From a bacterium (GTDB taxonomy: Bacteria > Armatimonadota > Chthonomonadetes > Chthonomonadales > JAMCWF01), in assembly GCA_021842405.1 (NCBI GenBank), contig JAKBZR010000002.1, positions 1 through 52,746 on the forward strand: a stretch of 52,746 bases of DNA, in the 5' to 3' direction. Under the pieces are notes generated by a model. The model did not search any database. It was not told where the DNA came from and worked only from the letters and a program-made list of their open reading frames with translations. Position numbers and translations under genes: made by a program. Positions 1,017 to 47,713 of this stretch are shown piece after piece (position 1 is the first letter of the stretch; the number at the start of each line of letters is the position of its first letter).

Positions 1017-1085
1017 CCTTTACCTCACTCTTTTATTAATTGGGACATATATTAATAGACACATGAGAATTCACCCCCACCCTAA

Positions 1086-1107
1086 CCCTCCCCCTCAAGG
1101 GGGAGGG
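1086..1107. repeat. C-rich hairpin CCCTCCCC-CTCAAG-GGGGAGGG
   Basis: 8-bp perfect arms preceded by CACCCTAA, the same motif as in MITE-like copy 1 (CACCCTAACCCTCCCCC). Confidence 0.7.
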
Positions 1108-1293
1108 AAATATTCCCCTCTCCAAACTTGGAGCGGGGACAGAGGTGAGAGCCTTCCAACTAAATTATTCAGAGAACACAATCCATTCATAATGTCAAAT
1201 ATATTACGTCCGGCGTAATAACCAGTTAAAGCAATCGAACATTCAGTAAATAACTTATCCCTTCGAGTACGAAAATCCTGCAACAAAGCAAAA

Positions 1294-3588
1294 TCAGTAA
1301 ATCCCGCCCACGCTGGTATCAATCGCCTGCCCGAACTGTCCGATGCCAAACTGATTGGATACGGGAAACGCATTGATCTGCAGCGTGAAGTAGAGCGAGC
1401 GATCGGTGCGGAAGCCGAAAGGGTTATTGATGTAGGTTACGCCCATCGTCAGGCATCCGTAGTTGCGAGTGAGCTGAAAATCCTGGCTCATGAAACGCCC
1501 GATATAGCCGTTATATTGAAAGAGGGCAACCAGTCGCCACACCTTGGCGAACGGCAGGTTGAGGTAGCCGTTGATGTTGCCGAAAGTATGTAACTGGGCA
1601 TCGTATCGAGTAACCAGATCGAGCGCCAGCTTGTCGGGACCGCGGGCGTGAAACATGCTGGTGACGGCGATAAATCGGTTGGAATTCGGATCGTAAGTGA
1701 TAAGGTTTTGCCACTGAAAAAAACGACTTGGCTTGAAGAGCAGGTTGGCGGATAAGGTCTGCCATGCGGTGGTTCCAAAACCGGTTTGGTTAAAATCATA
1801 GCCGACTCTCGCGGTTGCCTGGAAGTGGGAATCGCTGAGCAAACCGAGATCGGCATTGATCGCATTATAGCCACCCTGCACGTCAAAGTTAAAGGGAGTC
1901 CCGCCCTCTGCGTGCTGGTAGGTGTAGTTGATATTCAAGCCTGATCCCTTGCCCCAACCTTGAGTTAAGTCGGTCGTATTTTGTAAAACGTATTGGGCGA
2001 AGCCGTCGGCATAAAAAAATTGGCGGAAGCCAAAGCTGGTCGTTAGATGGGTGGAGCGGGTTAATTGATTGGTCATGTTGTTCAAATTCATGCTGAAAGC
2101 TGCGCGTTCGGTTGCGACGTTTTGATTAAATTGCGGCTCGATGTAACGCCCGAAACCGAGACCAAGCGTGAGCGGCAGTTTAGATAAAAAACCGCTGGTG
2201 AACCGGTAATTATTTAGGTTGACCTCGGGTAATCGCTGAACGCCGCTGAAAAACGATTCAGAGGATTGGCGGCCCACCGGCGTAGTCCGATTCGCGATGA
2301 AGGTTAAAGTATAGTTGTTTTCGTGGTTATCCAGCTCAAAGCGCGAGTCAAGCTGTTGAACCAGGCTGGATATTCCCTGCCCACCGGAGCTGTAGCGGGT
2401 GAGGTTAAAATTGGAGGCCAGTGAAGTGTGGGAACCGAACTGTGCGGAATCACTGAGAGTGGCCGCATAAGAGTGCGTGCTGAATCCGCTTGAATCGTTG
2501 GCCAGTCTGGAAAGATTCAAAGAAAGCTGACTATTGCTGGTGTGCCGGGTGAGACCGAAGCGAGTATTGAAGACGGTGCTGTTCGATAGGCTGAGGTAGC
2601 TATTTCGCTGATAGTCGGCGCCGATATTCATCGCATAGCCCGCGCCAAGCGTTTGTTGATTGTTCAGGTTGGCCGATAGGTTGTTGGAGCTTCCGCTGGT
2701 CGGAATATCGTAAAGCATCAACCCGCCAACCATCTTCGCCAAATCCCAGTTTTGATTGATGCCAAGCCCGATCCCTTTCTTTTCCATCGCATCCACCCTG
2801 AAAATTCCCGGCGCCTTACTCGACAGCAGGTAGTTCAATGCGGTTTTGACATAAAAGCCCTCATCGGCAGAGCGCCCTATGCTCGGAGTGTAGGTGGATC
2901 GGTGCGGTTGAAATCGCTCATTCAATGGCAACACTAATACCGGCAATGTGAGTATCGGATGGCCGAACAAATCGAAACCAACCCGCTTTAAAATGGCCCT
3001 CTTGCCGGGAATGACCTCAATTGAACCGGCATGAAACTCATAGTGGGGCTTAGGAGCGGGGCACGTGGTTAAGTTGGTGTTGGTCGCGTTGATTTTTTGT
3101 GTTGATTGCCCGCTCACTTCACCGCCCGAAATGAAGAGCGGCGAGATGAGACGGTTTTGTAGAAACTCCGGCGACAAAGTGATGCTGGGGTGATCAATCT
3201 CGTAGGTACGGCGTTTCGGATAAAAGACGATCCGATCACCGGTCGCGGTAAGGCCCCGGTAGACCAGTTGCGTATTACCGGTTAAAACCACCTGAGCGCG
3301 AACGTTGCCGGCTAGGCGATTGCCGGTCAGGATGTACTCCCCTACCTGAAAAGTTACGTGTCCGCTCGCGCTGATGTCACCGGTTGCATCGTTAAAGCGA
3401 ATATGGTCGGCGGTAGCCAGCCCATATTCCGGTCCCGGCGGCTGCATCGGCGGCAAAAGAGATGAGGGTGACGGGGTGATGATTGGGCCGCTATTTGGAG
3501 GCGTCGCAATGGGAACGGCGGCCGCGCCCAGTAATGGGGCACACCAGAGGATAATTGCGGGTAACCCTCCCTTGAACCAGTTCCTCAC
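1294..3588 (-). CDS. LptD/OstA-like outer-membrane LPS-assembly protein
   Basis: 764 aa. N-terminal OstA-like region (HIRFNDATGDISASGHVTFQVGEYILTGNRL...TGDRIVFYPKRRTYEI) followed by a long aromatic/Asn-rich beta-barrel-like region. Overlaps the upstream LptF/G-like gene by 4 bp. Confidence 0.75.
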   Translation of the reverse strand: MRNWFKGGLPAIILWCAPLLGAAAVPIATPPNSGPIITPSPSSLLPPMQPPGPEYGLATADHIRFNDATGDISASGHVTFQVGEYILTGNRLAGNVRAQVVLTGNTQLVYRGLTATGDRIVFYPKRRTYEIDHPSITLSPEFLQNRLISPLFISGGEVSGQSTQKINATNTNLTTCPAPKPHYEFHAGSIEVIPGKRAILKRVGFDLFGHPILTLPVLVLPLNERFQPHRSTYTPSIGRSADEGFYVKTALNYLLSSKAPGIFRVDAMEKKGIGLGINQNWDLAKMVGGLMLYDIPTSGSSNNLSANLNNQQTLGAGYAMNIGADYQRNSYLSLSNSTVFNTRFGLTRHTSNSQLSLNLSRLANDSSGFSTHSYAATLSDSAQFGSHTSLASNFNLTRYSSGGQGISSLVQQLDSRFELDNHENNYTLTFIANRTTPVGRQSSESFFSGVQRLPEVNLNNYRFTSGFLSKLPLTLGLGFGRYIEPQFNQNVATERAAFSMNLNNMTNQLTRSTHLTTSFGFRQFFYADGFAQYVLQNTTDLTQGWGKGSGLNINYTYQHAEGGTPFNFDVQGGYNAINADLGLLSDSHFQATARVGYDFNQTGFGTTAWQTLSANLLFKPSRFFQWQNLITYDPNSNRFIAVTSMFHARGPDKLALDLVTRYDAQLHTFGNINGYLNLPFAKVWRLVALFQYNGYIGRFMSQDFQLTRNYGCLTMGVTYINNPFGFRTDRSLYFTLQINAFPVSNQFGIGQFGQAIDTSVGGIY

Positions 3589-4691
3589 TCCTCACCCCGA
3601 AGCACGACCAACCCTGCCAGCACAAAGAGGATGTCTTGGGACCAAGCCGCGATAAGCGGCGGCAGCAGCCCCTGGTAACCCAGTATCTTGGACAGCAACA
3701 TTGTGTTCCAGTATACGAAAACCAATATAATGGAGAGCAAAACGCCGGTGAAGTTTCCGGTGCGCGCGAACCGCAAGCTCAACGGCGGACAGCAGATCGC
3801 GAAAACCAGGCAACTGAACGGCACCGAGAGCTTAAAGTAGTAATCCAACAAGTCGTTCGGATTCACGCCGCCGGCCTTTCTCTCTTCTACCAAGCGATGG
3901 CCGAGTTGACTGAAGCTCATCGTCGAGGAGGATGAATAGAAGGGAAGCTGTAGTTGGATGAGGATGAAGTTTTGCTCCGCGATTCGGAAATTGATAATCC
4001 ACTGCTTGGCTTTGATAAACTGCTCCTCCAAGCCGTTATGCAGGTAATTGTGTACGAAGACGTCATGCAGATCCCAGATACCGTTCCGATAAGTCCCCCA
4101 CTTCGCAAACGCGATCCTCGGCAAGGAGTTGTCAGCGCTGTCGCCGATTTGGCCGATCATCACGTTATAGGTTTGCACGCCATTCTTTGCCAACACCATT
4201 CGGCCTACGTAGGCGATATAGCGATGATCCGGCGATTCCACCCAAGTTCTCTCCTGGGGAACCAAGTAGTGCAGATTTCGGGAAATGGAGGCGAGCGTCG
4301 CCTCCATCTGCCGGTTTGACAAAGGCACTAGGTTCTCCCCTAAAAAGAAGTCCAAGACGGACAGCACTAGACCAATGATGAAGATAGGCAGAAAGATTCG
4401 TTTTAAGGAGATACCGGAACTTCGCATAACCGTAATTTCGCTGTCCCGGGTTAAACGGCTCACCGCCAGCGATGCTGCGATTGCGGTGGCAACTGGCATC
4501 GTCATATGAATTAAATAGGGTAAAAAATAGACGACTACACGAGCAACATCGCTCGCTGCAATGTGGTAGCTTAAAAAGATGCCGGCGTTGTTGTAGAGAA
4601 CGGTGCCGGTCAGCATAAGCACGACGGCAAACTGACCAATCAGGGAAGGGATTATCAGTTCGCGGATCAGATAGCGGTCCAGCGTTTTCAT
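3585..4691 (-). CDS. LptF/LptG (YjgP/YjgQ) family permease
   Basis: MKTLDRYLIRELIIPSLIGQF... N-terminus, several TM segments, and LSVPFSCLVFAICCPPLSLRFARTGNFTGVLLSIILVFVYW near the C-terminus. Confidence 0.85.
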   Translation of the reverse strand: MKTLDRYLIRELIIPSLIGQFAVVLMLTGTVLYNNAGIFLSYHIAASDVARVVVYFLPYLIHMTMPVATAIAASLAVSRLTRDSEITVMRSSGISLKRIFLPIFIIGLVLSVLDFFLGENLVPLSNRQMEATLASISRNLHYLVPQERTWVESPDHRYIAYVGRMVLAKNGVQTYNVMIGQIGDSADNSLPRIAFAKWGTYRNGIWDLHDVFVHNYLHNGLEEQFIKAKQWIINFRIAEQNFILIQLQLPFYSSSSTMSFSQLGHRLVEERKAGGVNPNDLLDYYFKLSVPFSCLVFAICCPPLSLRFARTGNFTGVLLSIILVFVYWNTMLLSKILGYQGLLPPLIAAWSQDILFVLAGLVVLRGEE

Positions 4692-5485: not shown

Positions 5486-6001
5486 TTAAAAAGCCTTCCC
5501 GACCATAACGGAGAGACCATCCACCCGGCCGGTGCTGAAGTGGGCAACTACGTCGTAGTTCAACTCCAGAAAGGCGCCGTGTCCGAGAGACGTACCGGCA
5601 ATAAAGCGCACGCCGATGCGGCTTTCGGTTCCGGACCCCTTCAGATGGCCGGTATATAGCCCGGCACCCACTCCAAGGTAGAGCGGCCCCAACGGGGCTT
5701 GCCAGATCTCCGAGTAGGTGATCGGGATCACATAGCTACCGCCGTTCCACTCGTAATCAATCCCAACTCGGCTTTGTAGCCCAGGGATGAGCGAGATTGC
5801 CGGCAAGTCGGCATCGGCGCCCAATTTAATCCAGGTTCCGCTCCCAATTGAAGAATCGGTTGGGAATAGCGCTCCGATCTTCAGCCGAATGTTCGGGAAG
5901 CTCTGCTGCCCCATCTGGGCTACAGCGGGACGCGAGCCCATCATGATAAGGGCGGCAGCCACCAAAAGCCATTGTCCTGTTCGAAGCCATGCAAACCGCA
6001 A
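5486..6001 (-). CDS. Secreted/outer-membrane beta-barrel-like hypothetical protein
   Basis: Signal-peptide-like N-terminus (WLLVAAALIMMGSRPAVAQ) followed by alternating, Gly/aromatic-rich sequence. Confidence 0.6.
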   Translation of the reverse strand: MRFAWLRTGQWLLVAAALIMMGSRPAVAQMGQQSFPNIRLKIGALFPTDSSIGSGTWIKLGADADLPAISLIPGLQSRVGIDYEWNGGSYVIPITYSEIWQAPLGPLYLGVGAGLYTGHLKGSGTESRIGVRFIAGTSLGHGAFLELNYDVVAHFSTGRVDGLSVMVGKAF

Positions 6002-6171
6002 TGCTAGTCCTTTCTGGCCGGCGGCACAAACTGACCCTTCGGTGTAGTCTCCCGGCCCAATCGTTTGATTTCATCATGCTGGTCTCTTTAGTGCATCCTA
6101 TACGACCACTGACAAATATTGCAGCGAGCCAGCAATCAGAGTATAACCTAATCTTGGATATTTATGTCAAT

Positions 6172-6374
6172 GAATGAGTTCAGTTCTCTGGGAATCATTT
6201 ACGACCATATTGGATGCACCCTCACCCTAACCCTCCCCCGTAAACGGGGGAGGGGATTAAGAGGGACTGGTGAAGGAGATTGCTTCGCTTCGCTCGCAAT
6301 GATACCCTCTCCGCTTGCGGGGAGGGCCAGGGTGGGGGCGAACGAAAATCACTCCCTGAGAACTGAACTCTTAC
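6172..6374. mobile_element. MITE-like element, copy 1 (203 bp)
   Basis: Terminal inverted repeats: GAATGAGTTCAGTTCTCTGGGAATCATT (6172-6199) and the reverse complement of 6347-6374, GTAAGAGTTCAGTTCTCAGGGAGTGATT. Flanked by an exact 8-bp direct repeat ATGTCAAT (6164-6171 and 6375-6382). No coding capacity. Confidence 0.72.
6231..6254. repeat. Perfect hairpin CCCTCCCCCG-TAAA-CGGGGGAGGG inside MITE-like copy 1
   Basis: 10-bp perfect arms read directly from the sequence. Confidence 0.8.
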
Positions 6375-6476
6375 ATGTCAATCTGCGATACGGGTTCATG
6401 TGATATTATTTATGTTCACCTAAAATCGGCTGATGCACAGTATGGAGGTGCATTTCATGATCGGAAGGAGCTGAGC

Positions 6477-8516
6477 GTGTCTTTTAAACGAGCAACGCGG
6501 CGTGAGTTTCTGCAAATCGCGGCCGGTGGCGCGACTGGGTTGGGGCTTACCTCTGTCATTTGGGAGTTGGCGGGTGCGGAGACCGCAGTCGGCGATCCCC
6601 CGTCTCCGGAATCCTCCCAACGCATCGGGCCTACGTTAATACCCTTTTACACCGGCAATCTAAGCGTTGATATCTTTATGTATTACTGGGGAACCGCTAA
6701 AGGTTCGGGCACCGGTATCAGCGACGTAACACCCGATCTTATTGAAACTCTCCATCAAATCAGTGTTTTTGCCGATACCGACTACCTAGCATGGTGCATT
6801 TCTGAAAAGGAAAAGGGCGTATGGGACTTTGCATACTATCAAGAAAACGCCCGTCGTCTCCACCAGTCCGGATTGCAATATGACGTATTCTGTTGGGTTC
6901 ACTTTCCACCGAAGTGGGCGGTGGAAGGGGTGGATTTCACGCCTTACGTTGACCTCGAAAGCGGTCAGCCAACGAGGCAGGTTTCCGCCTGGGATCCAAA
7001 CCTCCCTCATATCTACGGCAGATACTACGCGGAGCTGAAGGAGCATTTGGGCGATCAAATTGATTTCCTCCGCGTCGCTTACCCTTCGGAGTATGGTGAA
7101 ATCGGCTATCCTAACGGCATGACCAATTGGTTGGTTCCGCAAGTGTACCCTCACCCGGGATACTGGTGCGCGGACCGATATGCGAAGGCCGACTACCAAA
7201 AGGTTTTCCTGGCTCGCTATGGCTCATTGGATGCCTTGAATCGCGCTTGGGGGACTGGTTTTGCAACGGCGGAAGAGATCACATTTCCGGCGGTTAAGGG
7301 CAACCTCACGGCTAAAAAGGCTCGTGTTCCAGCCAACATTCAAGCGAGACGATATTGGCTTGATTTTGTTAACTGGTTTCAGGATCATGTGAATCGCTGT
7401 TTCCGGGAGATCAGTCGCGTAGTCCGCCGCAATTTTCCCGATAAAAAGCAGATCGGCAGCTTGGGATATGGCAGTGAGAAGGTCTGTTACGGAAACGATA
7501 CCAGTCGGCATGTGAAAATGCTTCACACGGAGCGTGTATCCGCACAAACGCCAGGCGCCATCGGTTACTTTGCGACCCGCCGCGTGTCGAGCGCATGCCA
7601 TTTCTATCACACCGGCTACTACACCGAGCCGCCGGGCGATGTGGACCCGATGGATGAGGTGAAGCGGATATGGATGGATGCCAGCAACGGAGCTCAGGTC
7701 TACTTCGACTATCCACAGAACTTAAAGCGCGCCATCCCGGAGTTCATAAAATATAAAATCCATTTAAACGGACGGCGCTCACTGACCGATGTCGCCTATT
7801 TCTTCCCCAGCAGCTCGTTTTGGCTGGAGCCGGATATGGATTGGCCGACCCATACCTATGCAGTGGCTGAGGCGCTCCGAAATCAATTGGACTTTGAAAT
7901 TATAGACGAACTGATGATCCAGGACGGCGCTCTCGATGCGATGGGAATTCATACATTGGTGTGGGTGGAGGGTAACTTGGTCGCCGATAAGACATTGAGC
8001 GCCGTTCATCATTGGATTGAGCGGGGTGGATCGCTCATTCGAAGAGGAACGGGTCTTGTTTACGACCTGGACGGCCAAGAGGCTCATTGGATAAATCGGC
8101 TGCCAGCCGGCCAATTCTCCGACAATTTACGGAGCGTTTGGGGCTCTTCCCATCATCCGCTGGGGGCCGGCACCGTGATTGTAATTGACGTGCCAGATAC
8201 CGAGTTGGCTCATTTCATTGACTGTGTTCCGGAGTTTTCAGTTAACCGTACTGCTTATGATGCCCGCTCATTCGTAAATGCGGTTATGCTGAACCACTCC
8301 AAAGCTCCAACCGTTTTCCCCAGTCTTTTTTCCGATCGGATACTCTATCTAAACGATTCGCGAACCGATCGAGTGGAATTTTCGGTTCAACTGAGGCAAG
8401 CCGATTTTCAAAAGCGGGGCTTACCGGTCCCAGAGCCACTCTCAACCACTATGAAGCTGCCTCCTCGCAGCATTGGGGTTATCTGGCTGAAAAGTAAACA
8501 AAATCGAACTGCCTGA
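6477..8516 (+). CDS. Tat-exported glycoside hydrolase-like protein (GH42-like architecture, uncertain)
   Basis: In-frame GTG at 6477 with upstream GGAAGGAG. Tat-type motif RATRREFLQIAAGGATGLGLTSVIWELAGA. Long TIM-barrel-like region (WDFAYYQENARRLHQSGLQYDVFCWVHFPPKWAVEG). The track start at 6375 lies within the target duplication of the adjacent MITE-like element. Confidence 0.65.
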   Translation: MSFKRATRREFLQIAAGGATGLGLTSVIWELAGAETAVGDPPSPESSQRIGPTLIPFYTGNLSVDIFMYYWGTAKGSGTGISDVTPDLIETLHQISVFADTDYLAWCISEKEKGVWDFAYYQENARRLHQSGLQYDVFCWVHFPPKWAVEGVDFTPYVDLESGQPTRQVSAWDPNLPHIYGRYYAELKEHLGDQIDFLRVAYPSEYGEIGYPNGMTNWLVPQVYPHPGYWCADRYAKADYQKVFLARYGSLDALNRAWGTGFATAEEITFPAVKGNLTAKKARVPANIQARRYWLDFVNWFQDHVNRCFREISRVVRRNFPDKKQIGSLGYGSEKVCYGNDTSRHVKMLHTERVSAQTPGAIGYFATRRVSSACHFYHTGYYTEPPGDVDPMDEVKRIWMDASNGAQVYFDYPQNLKRAIPEFIKYKIHLNGRRSLTDVAYFFPSSSFWLEPDMDWPTHTYAVAEALRNQLDFEIIDELMIQDGALDAMGIHTLVWVEGNLVADKTLSAVHHWIERGGSLIRRGTGLVYDLDGQEAHWINRLPAGQFSDNLRSVWGSSHHPLGAGTVIVIDVPDTELAHFIDCVPEFSVNRTAYDARSFVNAVMLNHSKAPTVFPSLFSDRILYLNDSRTDRVEFSVQLRQADFQKRGLPVPEPLSTTMKLPPRSIGVIWLKSKQNRTA

Positions 8517-10289: not shown

Positions 10290-10431
10290 GATAGCCTGTG
10301 GCACAGTTCATCGTCAAGACCAATTTAAAGAAGTTTCGCTTACCAATTTAAGCGGTTATTCCGCGAACGCAAAGTTGAAAACCCTAAATACAGTCGAGTA
10401 TCTATCTGAAAACCCGAACACTTCGCCGCGT

Positions 10432-10521
10432 TGTCATTGCGAGCGACCGCAGGGAGCAGGCGATCCCCCTCGTCAAAGAGGAGGTAGCTTCGGCGCCGCT
10501 TCGCGGCTTCTCGCAATGACA
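10432..10521. repeat. Intergenic inverted repeat with TGTCATTGCGAG/CTCGCAATGACA ends
   Basis: Perfect 12-bp terminal inverted repeat spanning 90 bp; resembles the 'cattgcgag' class of dispersed intergenic repeats seen in many environmental bacteria. Confidence 0.7.
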
Positions 10522-10564
10522 GGAGAACCTCCGCATCCCGGCCTGCCGATAGTCAGGGAACTGG

Positions 10565-10603
10565 ATTCCTGCCATCCATACCACTGGAGCGGATGGCGGG
10601 AAT
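10565..10603. repeat. Inverted repeat ATTCCTGCCATCC...GGATGGCGGGAAT
   Basis: 13-bp arms with one mismatch, adjacent to the 10432-10521 repeat. Confidence 0.6.
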
Positions 10604-10765
10604 GACGAAGCGACGTGCTCTGACGACTTTTTCAACAACCTCTTAAAGAAGATAGGGATATCATCAACTCGGTAAGGAAGCCAATTCAGCCGAGATTCCA
10701 ACCTGTTTTATTTACAGCTTGCCCAATCTCGACTATAATGATGGCCATCGGGTAACCGACCATTC

Positions 10766-27303: not shown

Positions 27304-28062
27304 CTATCGCTGGTCACTGAGCGGGACACAATACATTCCACCCCAACTCGGCTCAACGATACGGTTGCTTGAATCCCGCGTCACTCCACCGCCGTTTGTA
27401 TTTGCCATTCGAATGGCTTTCACATGGCCATCGGCTGCCACCGTTGATAGCTCCGCTGAGATAGCCGGATCACCCCAATCATCCGTTTGACCCGGATACT
27501 GGGTCACAAAGTGCATTTGGCCGTTCCATTCCAGGATGTCTGGGCAGGTCCAGCCCGGTCCAAAATCGTCGAACCAAGTGACCCCGCCGGGCGTCTCTGA
27601 AACGAGCATGGTAGAGGCGGGAACCGTTAGACCGGCCAGCATGCCTCCCATATCCCATGAGATATGAGTATTTAACGCATAGGTGGAGTGCATATATCGG
27701 CCGGAGACGCCCCACCCGTCCGGCTCTGGAAATGGCCCGCTGTAGCTCGGACATCGCAGAATTTGCAACGATTTCATATAGGGCTGGATGTAGTCATACC
27801 AGCATTGAAAATCGGCCGGATTTGAATCGGGGCCTCCACCCCCCGCATTATTGTCTGGAAATGACATAATTCGTTCATCGTAGTCTTGCGCGTACATAAG
27901 CAATGCAAGGCCGATCTCCTTTACATTGGAGACGCACGTGATCTGGCGCGCCTTTTCCCTGGCTTGTGCGAAAACCGGAAAAAGAATGGCTGCCAATATC
28001 GCGATAATCGCAATAACTACGAGAAGCTCGATGAGAGTAAATGCGCTTCTCTTCTGTTTCAT
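27304..28062 (-). CDS. DUF1559-type prepilin-like protein (unit B)
   Basis: [65 protein letters not shown] plus C-terminal [11 protein letters not shown]; strong RBS AAGGAGG. Confidence 0.93.
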
Positions 28063-28463: not shown

Positions 28464-29267
28464 TTATGAACCAGGTGGGCTGTTGTCATCGTTCCAGGGA
28501 TAGTACAAATAGTAGTAACGTTTTCCCGCCACGCAGCCCGGAACGTAGGTAATGCTGTTGTTCGCGCAAGAAGCAATGCAGCTCGGGTTGCTGGGTCCCG
28601 GCTGTAATGACTGCATGAAGCCATAGGTTAAATGCTTTGCATGGCCATCCACAAAGGTTACATTGACCCCATCATGCAGCGGATGGCGATAAGCAATTTC
28701 ACCGCCCGACTCATCATCGGCCAAGCCGCCATGCCAGCTCAACCAACCCCACTGAGGCCCGTTCCACCACGAGGCGACATCAATGAACCAGATTCTCATA
28801 GCGGGCTGGTGGATTACATCCAGGCGCAGCGGGTTGGGATATCCAGTGGCCGGATTGGAGTAGTTGCCAGTACACAGGCCGTGCCCGGCCGTGCCGTACC
28901 AGTTAAACCCATAGCTCGTCTCAAAATAGCCGACCCAACCATTACCCGACGCAAACCAGTTGTCGTTGGGTATGGCCTGATCGGGACAGTGATAGATCGC
29001 GGTGGACTTCAGATAGGGATAAATCCAATAGTCCCAAACATCGTAGTTGTACTGCCACGTCGTGTCAATGCACCAGTAGCCGTCGTAATCACTGACGTAC
29101 ATCATAGCGGCGGTGGTGATGTTTTTCTCGTTCGACATACAGCTTATGGTGCGGGCCGCCTCTCTCGCCTGTGCGAAAACCGGAAAAAGAATGGCTGCCA
29201 ATATCGCGATAATCGCAATAACTACGAGAAGCTCGATCAGTGTAAAGCCGGAACGTCTATTTCGCAT
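28464..29267 (-). CDS. DUF1559-type prepilin-like protein (unit A)
   Basis: Start reassigned to ATG 29267 (RBS GAAGAGGAG): [66 protein letters not shown]-terminal [16 protein letters not shown]. Confidence 0.93.
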
Positions 29268-46697: not shown

Positions 46698-47550
46698 TGC
46701 CTATCTGTTACTGGCGGATGATGCCTGGCTCGAGCGCTCGCTGCGCGCCTACTACCCTTTCATTAACTGGCTTACCGCCTGTTATGACGAAAACGGCCGT
46801 GGATTTACCGGTTGCCCCATTGATATTTCGCCAGCCCGAGAGACCCTTCAGCGCTGCGATACCGAAAAAAAAGTTCAATGGCTTTCCGCTCCATTTCACT
46901 GCCGCGAGTTGTCGCCGCTTGAGGTGGAAACCAAAATGAGGCAGGCCGGTCTCGCAGAAGCCGGATCAGGCGCCGATTGGGTCATTCAGCTTGATAACGA
47001 TGAGGTGCTGCCTGACCCCGATGCCATTCAATCGGCATTGATGATGGCGGACCGACTTGGAGCGAGCGCGATTGAATGGCCGATGCGGACCCTTTTCCGG
47101 CAACTCTCCGATTCTCAATTCCTGGAAGTTTGTGGCAAAAACGGAGAGCCCTCATACAGTTTTCAGGGCGCAATCGCAGTTCGGCCCGGCGTCCAGTTAG
47201 AACTGGCGCGCTGGGTAAAAGCGACCCGATTGCGCTTTATCACGCCTGAACCACAACACAATTTGCTGGCTACCGATGACGCACTTTCCGATCCTCAGGT
47301 CATTCCGATAACGGCAATTCGGCCGGATCAAGCAATATGGCATTTTTCCTGGGCCCGCACCGAAGAGAATCTGCGAACCAAGTTGCAGTGCTGGGGACAT
47401 GCCCATCAATTCAACGGCCGGCGATATCTGAAACGGGTATGGCGCAAATCCGATCGAGATTGGCCGAAAATGAGGAATTTCCACCCATTCTTGCGCGATC
47501 ACTGGCCGGCATTGAAGTGCACGACCCTCAATTTATCGGAGTTGAGGTAG
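46687..47550 (+). CDS. Glycosyltransferase-like protein (GT2-like)
   Basis: ATG at 46687 (MIVNAYLLLADDAWLERSLRAYYPFINWLTACYDENGRG); ADWVIQLDNDEVLPDPDAIQSAL acceptor motif. 3' end abuts the MITE-like copy 2. Confidence 0.72.
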   Translation: MIVNAYLLLADDAWLERSLRAYYPFINWLTACYDENGRGFTGCPIDISPARETLQRCDTEKKVQWLSAPFHCRELSPLEVETKMRQAGLAEAGSGADWVIQLDNDEVLPDPDAIQSALMMADRLGASAIEWPMRTLFRQLSDSQFLEVCGKNGEPSYSFQGAIAVRPGVQLELARWVKATRLRFITPEPQHNLLATDDALSDPQVIPITAIRPDQAIWHFSWARTEENLRTKLQCWGHAHQFNGRRYLKRVWRKSDRDWPKMRNFHPFLRDHWPALKCTTLNLSELR

Positions 47551-47713
47551 TAACAATTCAGTTTTCTGGTAATTTTATGGAGAAATCGGCTATTAAACCC
47601 ACCCCCTCGATCCCCCTCCCTAAAATTTAGGGAGGGGGCAGGGGGAGGGTACAGTCCGATTGGTAGAACAGGAATGAGACCATAATGTGATTACCACAGA
47701 ACTGAACTCTTTC
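47550..47713. mobile_element. MITE-like element, copy 2 (164 bp)
   Basis: Left end GTAACAATTCAGTTTTCTGGTAAT; reverse complement of right end GAAAGAGTTCAGTTCTGTGGTAAT. Flanked by TTGAGGTA (47542-47549) and TTGAGTTT (47714-47721), 6/8 identical. Confidence 0.65.
47612..47638. repeat. Perfect hairpin CCCCCTCCCTAAA-A-TTTAGGGAGGGGG inside MITE-like copy 2
   Basis: 13-bp perfect arms. Confidence 0.85.

What the first reader, a model, noticed from the sequence alone, without database searches (positions are those of the whole stretch)
6164..6382. Unannotated MITE-like element, copy 1, with exact 8-bp target duplication
Seen directly: 28-bp inverted ends with a nearly identical core (GAGTTCAGTTCTC...), bounded by the exact direct repeat ATGTCAAT on both sides. 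The interior is non-coding: a CACCCTAACCCTCCCCC hairpin and a partial 'TTCGCTCGCAATGA' segment. Established: terminal inverted repeats, matching target duplications and no ORF define a MITE. GTAA-type tips with 8-bp duplications recall IS66-type elements; that assignment is inference.
Basis: partly seen in the sequence, partly recalled or inferred. Interest (0 to 1): 0.72.

Follow-up and report, generated by a model that had tools for sequence, protein, structure and literature searches.

The report
IS66-type MITE in an Armatimonadota genome
This is a short, gene-less jumping DNA element, one of roughly 300 in this uncultured bacterium's genome, and its ends match those of a known kind of transposon (IS66, single-gene ISBst12 type) found in related bacteria, so it is a genuine but ordinary mobile-element family.

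Summary
Window 6172-6374 is a 203-bp element with inverted ends (34-bp arms, 82% complementary) between exact 8-bp repeats ATGTCAAT. It is one of a large family. The genome has 606 copies of the end motif (303 per strand; reversed-pattern control 0). In 1.49 Mb sampled, 40 of 120 nearest end pairs carry a 7/8 or 8/8 match exactly at the tips, against 0-1 at shifted offsets. Two reciprocal empty sites against a congeneric genome (about 84% identical) show single 8-bp targets, so insertion made the duplications. The IS66 guess is supported: four other Armatimonadota genomes carry IS66 transposases between ends of the same type, two with exact 8-bp duplications, and one also holds a 421-bp internally deleted transposon whose end closely matches the MITE ends. 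No IS66 transposase was found in this genome or its congener, so the elements here are probably stranded, or their helper is missing from the assembly. Insertions avoid long open frames (14/42 versus 86% of random sites). Interiors are GC-rich nested hairpins, about 99-fold enriched inside the elements. Novelty is modest: I found no published IS66-derived MITE in the papers searched, but the type and mechanism are known.

The parts
6164..6171 (.). left target-site duplication ATGTCAAT
   Evidence: exact match to 6375-6382
6172..6203 (+). left terminal inverted repeat GAATGAGTTCAGTTCTCTGGGAATCATTTACG
   Evidence: 24/32 identical to the left end of the IS66 element in L298
6204..6342 (.). non-coding interior: two GC-rich hairpins (CACCCTAACCCTCCCCC...GGGGGAGGG; CCCTCTCCGCTTGCGGGGAGGG) flanking a TTGCTTCGCTTCGCTCGCAATGA segment
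   Evidence: whole element folds at -104.7 kcal/mol, z = -9.0; no Rfam match
6343..6374 (-). right terminal inverted repeat GTAAGAGTTCAGTTCTCAGGGAGTGATTTTCG (read on - strand)
   Evidence: 26/32 identical to the left end of the IS66 element in L298
6375..6382 (.). right target-site duplication ATGTCAAT
47550..47713 (.). second, diverged copy in the window (164 bp); flanks TTGAGGTA / TTGAGTTT (6/8)
   Evidence: (repeat I2)

Best explanation
A non-autonomous miniature transposon (MITE). An IS66-family transposase of the single-ORF ISBst12 type, supplied in trans, recognises the ~30-bp ends (GNANGAGTTCAGTTYTNNGGGA...), moves the element and duplicates 8 bp of target. Shown: paired ends, 8-bp duplications at the tips, high copy number, empty sites in a congener, and IS66 transposons with the same type of ends in relatives. 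Inferred: that IS66 transposase moved these copies. It is likely that the helper has been lost from this lineage or is missing from the draft assembly, which would leave these copies stranded.
For: End motif: 303 + 303 matches, reversed control 0. Of 120 nearest pairs, 28 have exact and 12 have 7/8 duplications at the tip, with 0-1 such pairs at ten shifted offsets; of duplication lengths 2-14, 8 bp is the clear maximum (28 exact; next 13 at 2 bp). 60 pairs with at least 7/8 duplication, 113-700 bp, across own, congeneric and distant genomes. Empty sites: G000:C34:32409-32541 (GGAATTAA) has a single GGAATTAA in G001; G001:C66:17835-18089 has a single CAACCGGG in the own genome. IS66 parents: L298 transposase (PF03050 E=8.4e-41, NF033517 E=2.7e-74) between ends at 1 and 1534; L300 element 983-2422 with exact CGTATTCT on both sides; G236 element split over two contigs with GCCGGTGC on both. 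Deletion derivative L310:305-725 carries transposase residues 10-87 joined to 410-458 between ends of this type; its right end GAGTGAGTTCAGTTTTGCGGGAGTGATTCTC matches the MITE consensus at 26/32. An active ISBst12-group element, ISDge4, has a single transposase ORF, ends GTGACTACTCAGCA / GTAACTGCTCAGCA and an 8-bp duplication (PMC12898284).
Against: No IS66 transposase or fragment was found in the own genome or in G001, so the helper for these copies was not seen. The draft is 97.4% complete in 174 contigs, and multi-copy transposons are often lost from such drafts. The best-matched parents come from a different family of the phylum. The 203-bp interior is not a piece of the transposase gene. 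L298's left flank is off the contig end and L301's two flanks do not match, so only two of four full-length or split relatives show duplications.
Confidence: 0.9

Rival explanations
1. A MITE family mobilised by a transposase of another family that also makes 8-bp duplications (for example IS1595, ISL3 or IS256), with the end resemblance to IS66 being coincidental.
For: No IS66 transposase in the own genome. Other families also give 8-bp duplications (own knowledge).
Against: IS66 transposase genes in G235, G236, G248 and G049 sit directly between ends of this type. The PF01609 and PF12762 hits examined had no such ends, and IS1595 is absent from the own genome. IS256 and ISL3 were not searched.
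Confidence: 0.06
2. A dispersed REP/BIME-like structural or regulatory repeat (RNA hairpin, terminator or protein-binding site) rather than a mobile element.
For: Very stable nested hairpin (z -9.0); intergenic bias; hairpin motifs dispersed in the genome.
Against: Exact 8-bp duplications at defined tips and reciprocal empty sites; hairpin motifs are mostly tied to the ends (333 of 445 within 100 bp of an end); no terminator-like or Rfam match.
Confidence: 0.03
3. Chance inverted repeat with a chance 8-bp repeat.
For: None beyond the a priori possibility for a single locus.
Against: Genome-wide recurrence.
Confidence: 0.001

Closest known systems
IS66 family, ISBst12 group (for example ISDge4 of Deinococcus geothermalis, PMC12898284)
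   Same: 8-bp target duplication; ends of the GTAAC.G.TCAG type; the related full-length elements have one transposase ORF of about 440-470 aa, as ISDge4 does (449 aa).
   Different: The window element has no transposase; 203 bp instead of about 1.4-1.5 kb; ends are extended GAGTTCAGTTYTNNGGGA.
MITECca01 of the Cardinium endosymbiont of Oedothorax gibbosus (PMC9769881)
   Same: High-copy IS-derived MITE (169 copies, 3.5% of the chromosome), mostly intergenic, derived by deletion from a resident IS.
   Different: Parent there is IS982 and intact copies remain in the genome; here the parent type is IS66 and none was found in the host.
MITEPsy1/MITEPsy2 of Pseudomonas syringae (PMC3189936)
   Same: Short non-coding elements of 100-228 bp with inverted ends.
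   Different: Few copies; families listed there as IS5? and unknown.

Membership tests
MITE (miniature inverted-repeat transposable element) | short, with terminal inverted repeats | tested here: met
   203 bp, 34-bp arms 82% complementary; family range 113-700 bp
MITE (miniature inverted-repeat transposable element) | target-site duplication of fixed length | tested here: met
   8 bp, 28 exact + 12 at 7/8 of 120 pairs
MITE (miniature inverted-repeat transposable element) | multiple dispersed copies | tested here: met
   606 ends in 3.51 Mb; 138 pairs in 1.49 Mb, 1.7% of the sequence
MITE (miniature inverted-repeat transposable element) | no transposase gene | tested here: met
   sequence and ORF list
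MITE (miniature inverted-repeat transposable element) | insertion shown by empty sites | tested here: met
   two reciprocal empty sites for family members; this copy's own site not testable
IS66 family, ISBst12-type parent | ends shared with an IS66-transposase element | tested here: met
   L298, L301, L310, and more distantly L299/L309 and L300
IS66 family, ISBst12-type parent | 8-bp target duplication in the IS66 parent elements | tested here: met
   CGTATTCT in L300; GCCGGTGC across L299/L309. L301's flanks do not match; L298's left flank is off the contig
IS66 family, ISBst12-type parent | single transposase ORF (no tnpA/tnpB) | tested here: met
   L298 and L300 hold one long ORF between the ends
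IS66 family, ISBst12-type parent | transposase present in the same genome | tested here: not met
   PF03050 and tblastn with the L298 transposase both negative in G000. A non-autonomous element need not have its helper in the same draft, so this lowers the claim of current mobility, not of origin
IS66 family, ISBst12-type parent | transposase acts on these ends | not testable with these tools
   needs an assay

The most novel reading that the evidence does not exclude
IS66-type ends act as a general capture device in Armatimonadota: in each host lineage they have enclosed that host's own dispersed palindromic repeats (CCCTCCCC hairpins and the CGCAATGA segment in the window genome; CATTCCGA...GGAATCTGC repeats in G235/G236) and made them into high-copy mosaic elements. 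They would thus spread the host's palindromic repeats, rather than being simple deletion derivatives of one transposon.
Probability: 0.2. Interest if true: 0.5.

Novelty: new member of a known kind. Interest (0 to 1): 0.35.

Why it matters
It documents a large (about 300 copies, about 1.7% of the sampled genome) MITE family of IS66/ISBst12 type in an uncultured phylum, with parent elements, a transposon-to-deletion-derivative intermediate and empty sites. I found no published IS66-derived MITE in the papers searched. It also explains much of the GC-rich intergenic hairpin repeat seen in this genome, which could otherwise be mistaken for regulatory RNA or assembly noise.

Tried and rejected
PF01609 and PF12762 transposases in G049, G062 and G000 had no matching ends. 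Pairs up to 8 kb apart with 7/8 or better duplications revealed no longer autonomous copy in the sampled own or congeneric DNA. A viral-contig scan for the end pattern gave 43 hits; the seven inspected were unpaired single matches, mostly one recurring sequence, taken as chance, and none of the 43 gave a pair with a duplication. Isolated hits in Spirochaetaceae, Clostridia and Verrucomicrobiaceae were unpaired. The orthologous site of the window copy was not found in G001: only MITE matches returned. Rfam, promoter and terminator scans were negative. The IS679/IS66 paper (PMC95320) is not held.

Full report
Observation. The element lies at window 6172-6374 (203 bp) between ATGTCAAT at 6164-6171 and 6375-6382. 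Its ends are GAATGAGTTCAGTTCTCTGGGAATCATTTACG and, on the other strand, GTAAGAGTTCAGTTCTCAGGGAGTGATTTTCG; the arms are 34 nt and 82% complementary. It lies between a gene read leftward (start near 6001) and a gene read rightward (likely start at the GTG at 6477, with a twin-arginine-like leader by eye) whose product matches glycoside hydrolase families 14 and 42 weakly. The single strand folds at -104.7 kcal/mol, z -9.0, as expected for nested inverted repeats.

Family in the genome. The window is contig C103 of a 3.51-Mb, 174-contig draft. The 17-base end motif occurs 303 times on each strand with up to one mismatch, and never in the reversed control. About 33 near-full-length matches to the 203-bp subfamily were scored, at 79-96% identity; this is a lower bound because only 40 of 450 candidates were scored. 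In 1.49 Mb fetched as stretches, 120 nearest pairs were found. With the tip as defined here, 28 have exact 8-bp and 12 have 7/8 flanking repeats; at ten shifted tip positions the numbers are 0-1. Exact repeats of 3-14 bp other than 8 occur 0-1 times, and of 2 bp 13 times, near chance. Main size classes are about 130-150 and 195-210 bp. The elements cover about 1.7% of the sampled DNA (138 pairs).

Insertion proven by empty sites. At G000:C34:32409-32541 the element flanked by GGAATTAA is absent from G001, which has one GGAATTAA. At G001:C66:17835-18089 the reverse holds: the own genome has one CAACCGGG. The window copy's own site was not found in G001, so for this copy insertion is inferred from its exact duplication and from the family.

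Distribution. In 292 Armatimonadota genomes the exact motif is found in 12: most in the own genus, then family f39 (G235, G236) and several genomes of family f19, with single, possibly chance, matches in G012 and G157. Pairs with 7-8/8 duplications are found in f1, f39 and f19, so these are true relatives. The phylum name comes from public record titles.

Parent transposon. IS66 transposase (PF03050) is absent from G000 and G001 and present in G235, G236, G049 and G248. In L298 (G235) the transposase ORF (PF03050 8.4e-41, NF033517 2.7e-74) lies between an end at position 1 (GTATGAGTTCAGTTCTCCGGGAGATATTC) and one at 1534 (GAGTGAGTTCAGTTCTCCGG); the former is 26/32 identical to the window's right end. 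In L300 (G049) a 1440-bp element with ends GTAACAGCTCAG... has exact CGTATTCT on both sides. In G236 an element apparently broken over two contigs has GCCGGTGC outside both ends. L301 (G248) has a disrupted transposase gene (a stop inside) between ends of the same type with unmatched flanks. L310 (G235) is a 421-bp deletion derivative carrying transposase residues 10-87 and 410-458, and its right end is 26/32 identical to the MITE end consensus; it is a plausible intermediate, though its flanks do not match each other. The anatomy (one transposase ORF, 8-bp duplications, GTAAC.G.TCAG ends) fits the ISBst12 group as described for ISDge4 (PMC12898284).

Mechanism. Best-supported: trans-mobilisation by an ISBst12-type IS66 transposase. 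Shown are the ends, the duplications, the empty sites and the IS66 elements with like ends in relatives. Inferred is the action of that transposase on these copies. Whether the helper is lost or only missing from the draft cannot be told: multi-copy transposons are commonly lost from such assemblies, and in G235 itself IS66 copies sit at contig edges.

Interior. CCCTCCCC-type motifs are about 99-fold enriched inside elements, and 333 of 445 CCCTCCCC/CCCTTCCC motifs lie within 100 bp of an end. The TTGCTTCGC...CGCAATGA segment occurs somewhat more often outside (25-27 outside, 19-20 inside), so it looks like a separate dispersed repeat that was captured. In G235/G236 the interiors carry a different dispersed repeat (CATTCCGA...GGAATCTGC). 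This mosaic nature is the least ordinary part and was not tested further.

Target choice. Insertion sites lie in open frames of 150 codons or more in 14 of 42 cases, against 1294 of 1500 random sites; duplicated targets are AT-richer than the genome (43% versus 54% GC) without a clear motif. This may reflect selection rather than insertion preference.

Novelty. A MITE in the ordinary sense. Comparable high-copy MITEs are published (Cardinium, 169 copies, IS982 parent; PMC9769881). Searches of the held papers found no IS66-derived MITE, but most subscription papers and ISfinder are not covered.

Noticed in passing
window 1060-1189: Probable decayed third copy: a CACCCCCACCCTAACCCTCCCCC hairpin followed by CTAAATTATTCAGAGAACACAATCCATTC, which resembles the MITE end CTAAATTACCCAGAGAACTGAACTCATTC; the left end is not recognisable.
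   Followed up: partly
window 10430-10610: Different dispersed repeats: a CATTGCGAGCG...CTCGCAATGACA palindromic segment and CAGGGAACTGGATTCC; the latter's reverse complement (GGAATCCAGTTCCCTG) also turned up in loci L039 and L049 of the same genome.
   Followed up: no
L310:305-725 (G235 contig C446): Internally deleted IS66 element joining transposase residues 10-87 to 410-458 between intact ends: a snapshot of a transposon on the way to a MITE.
   Followed up: partly
L233:3287-4006 (JAUSGG010000029.1): Element 3287-3638, then AGAATCGG, then sequence ending in another right end at 4006 followed by AGAATCGG again; the same 8-mer occurs three times, as if two elements shared one target or part of the element was duplicated.
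   Followed up: no
L117:16963-17662: Nested insertion: a 199-bp element (duplication GCTCAGCA) inside a 700-bp element (duplication TTACCAGG).
   Followed up: no
L209 (JAUSFD010000016.1): A 1.9-kb contig binned as Peregrinibacteria carries an element of this family with a 7/8 duplication; it comes from the same E14 sample as two Armatimonadota bins, so it is probably mis-binned.
   Followed up: no
L215:958-2382 (G001): A 1425-bp segment present in G001 and absent from the own genome at the orthologous place, with a 5-bp overlap at the junction; no ends of this family were recognised at the junctions.
   Followed up: no
window 27913-28041 and 29118-29246: Two prepilin-like genes with 81% identical DNA over the signal region ([29 protein letters not shown]).
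   Followed up: no
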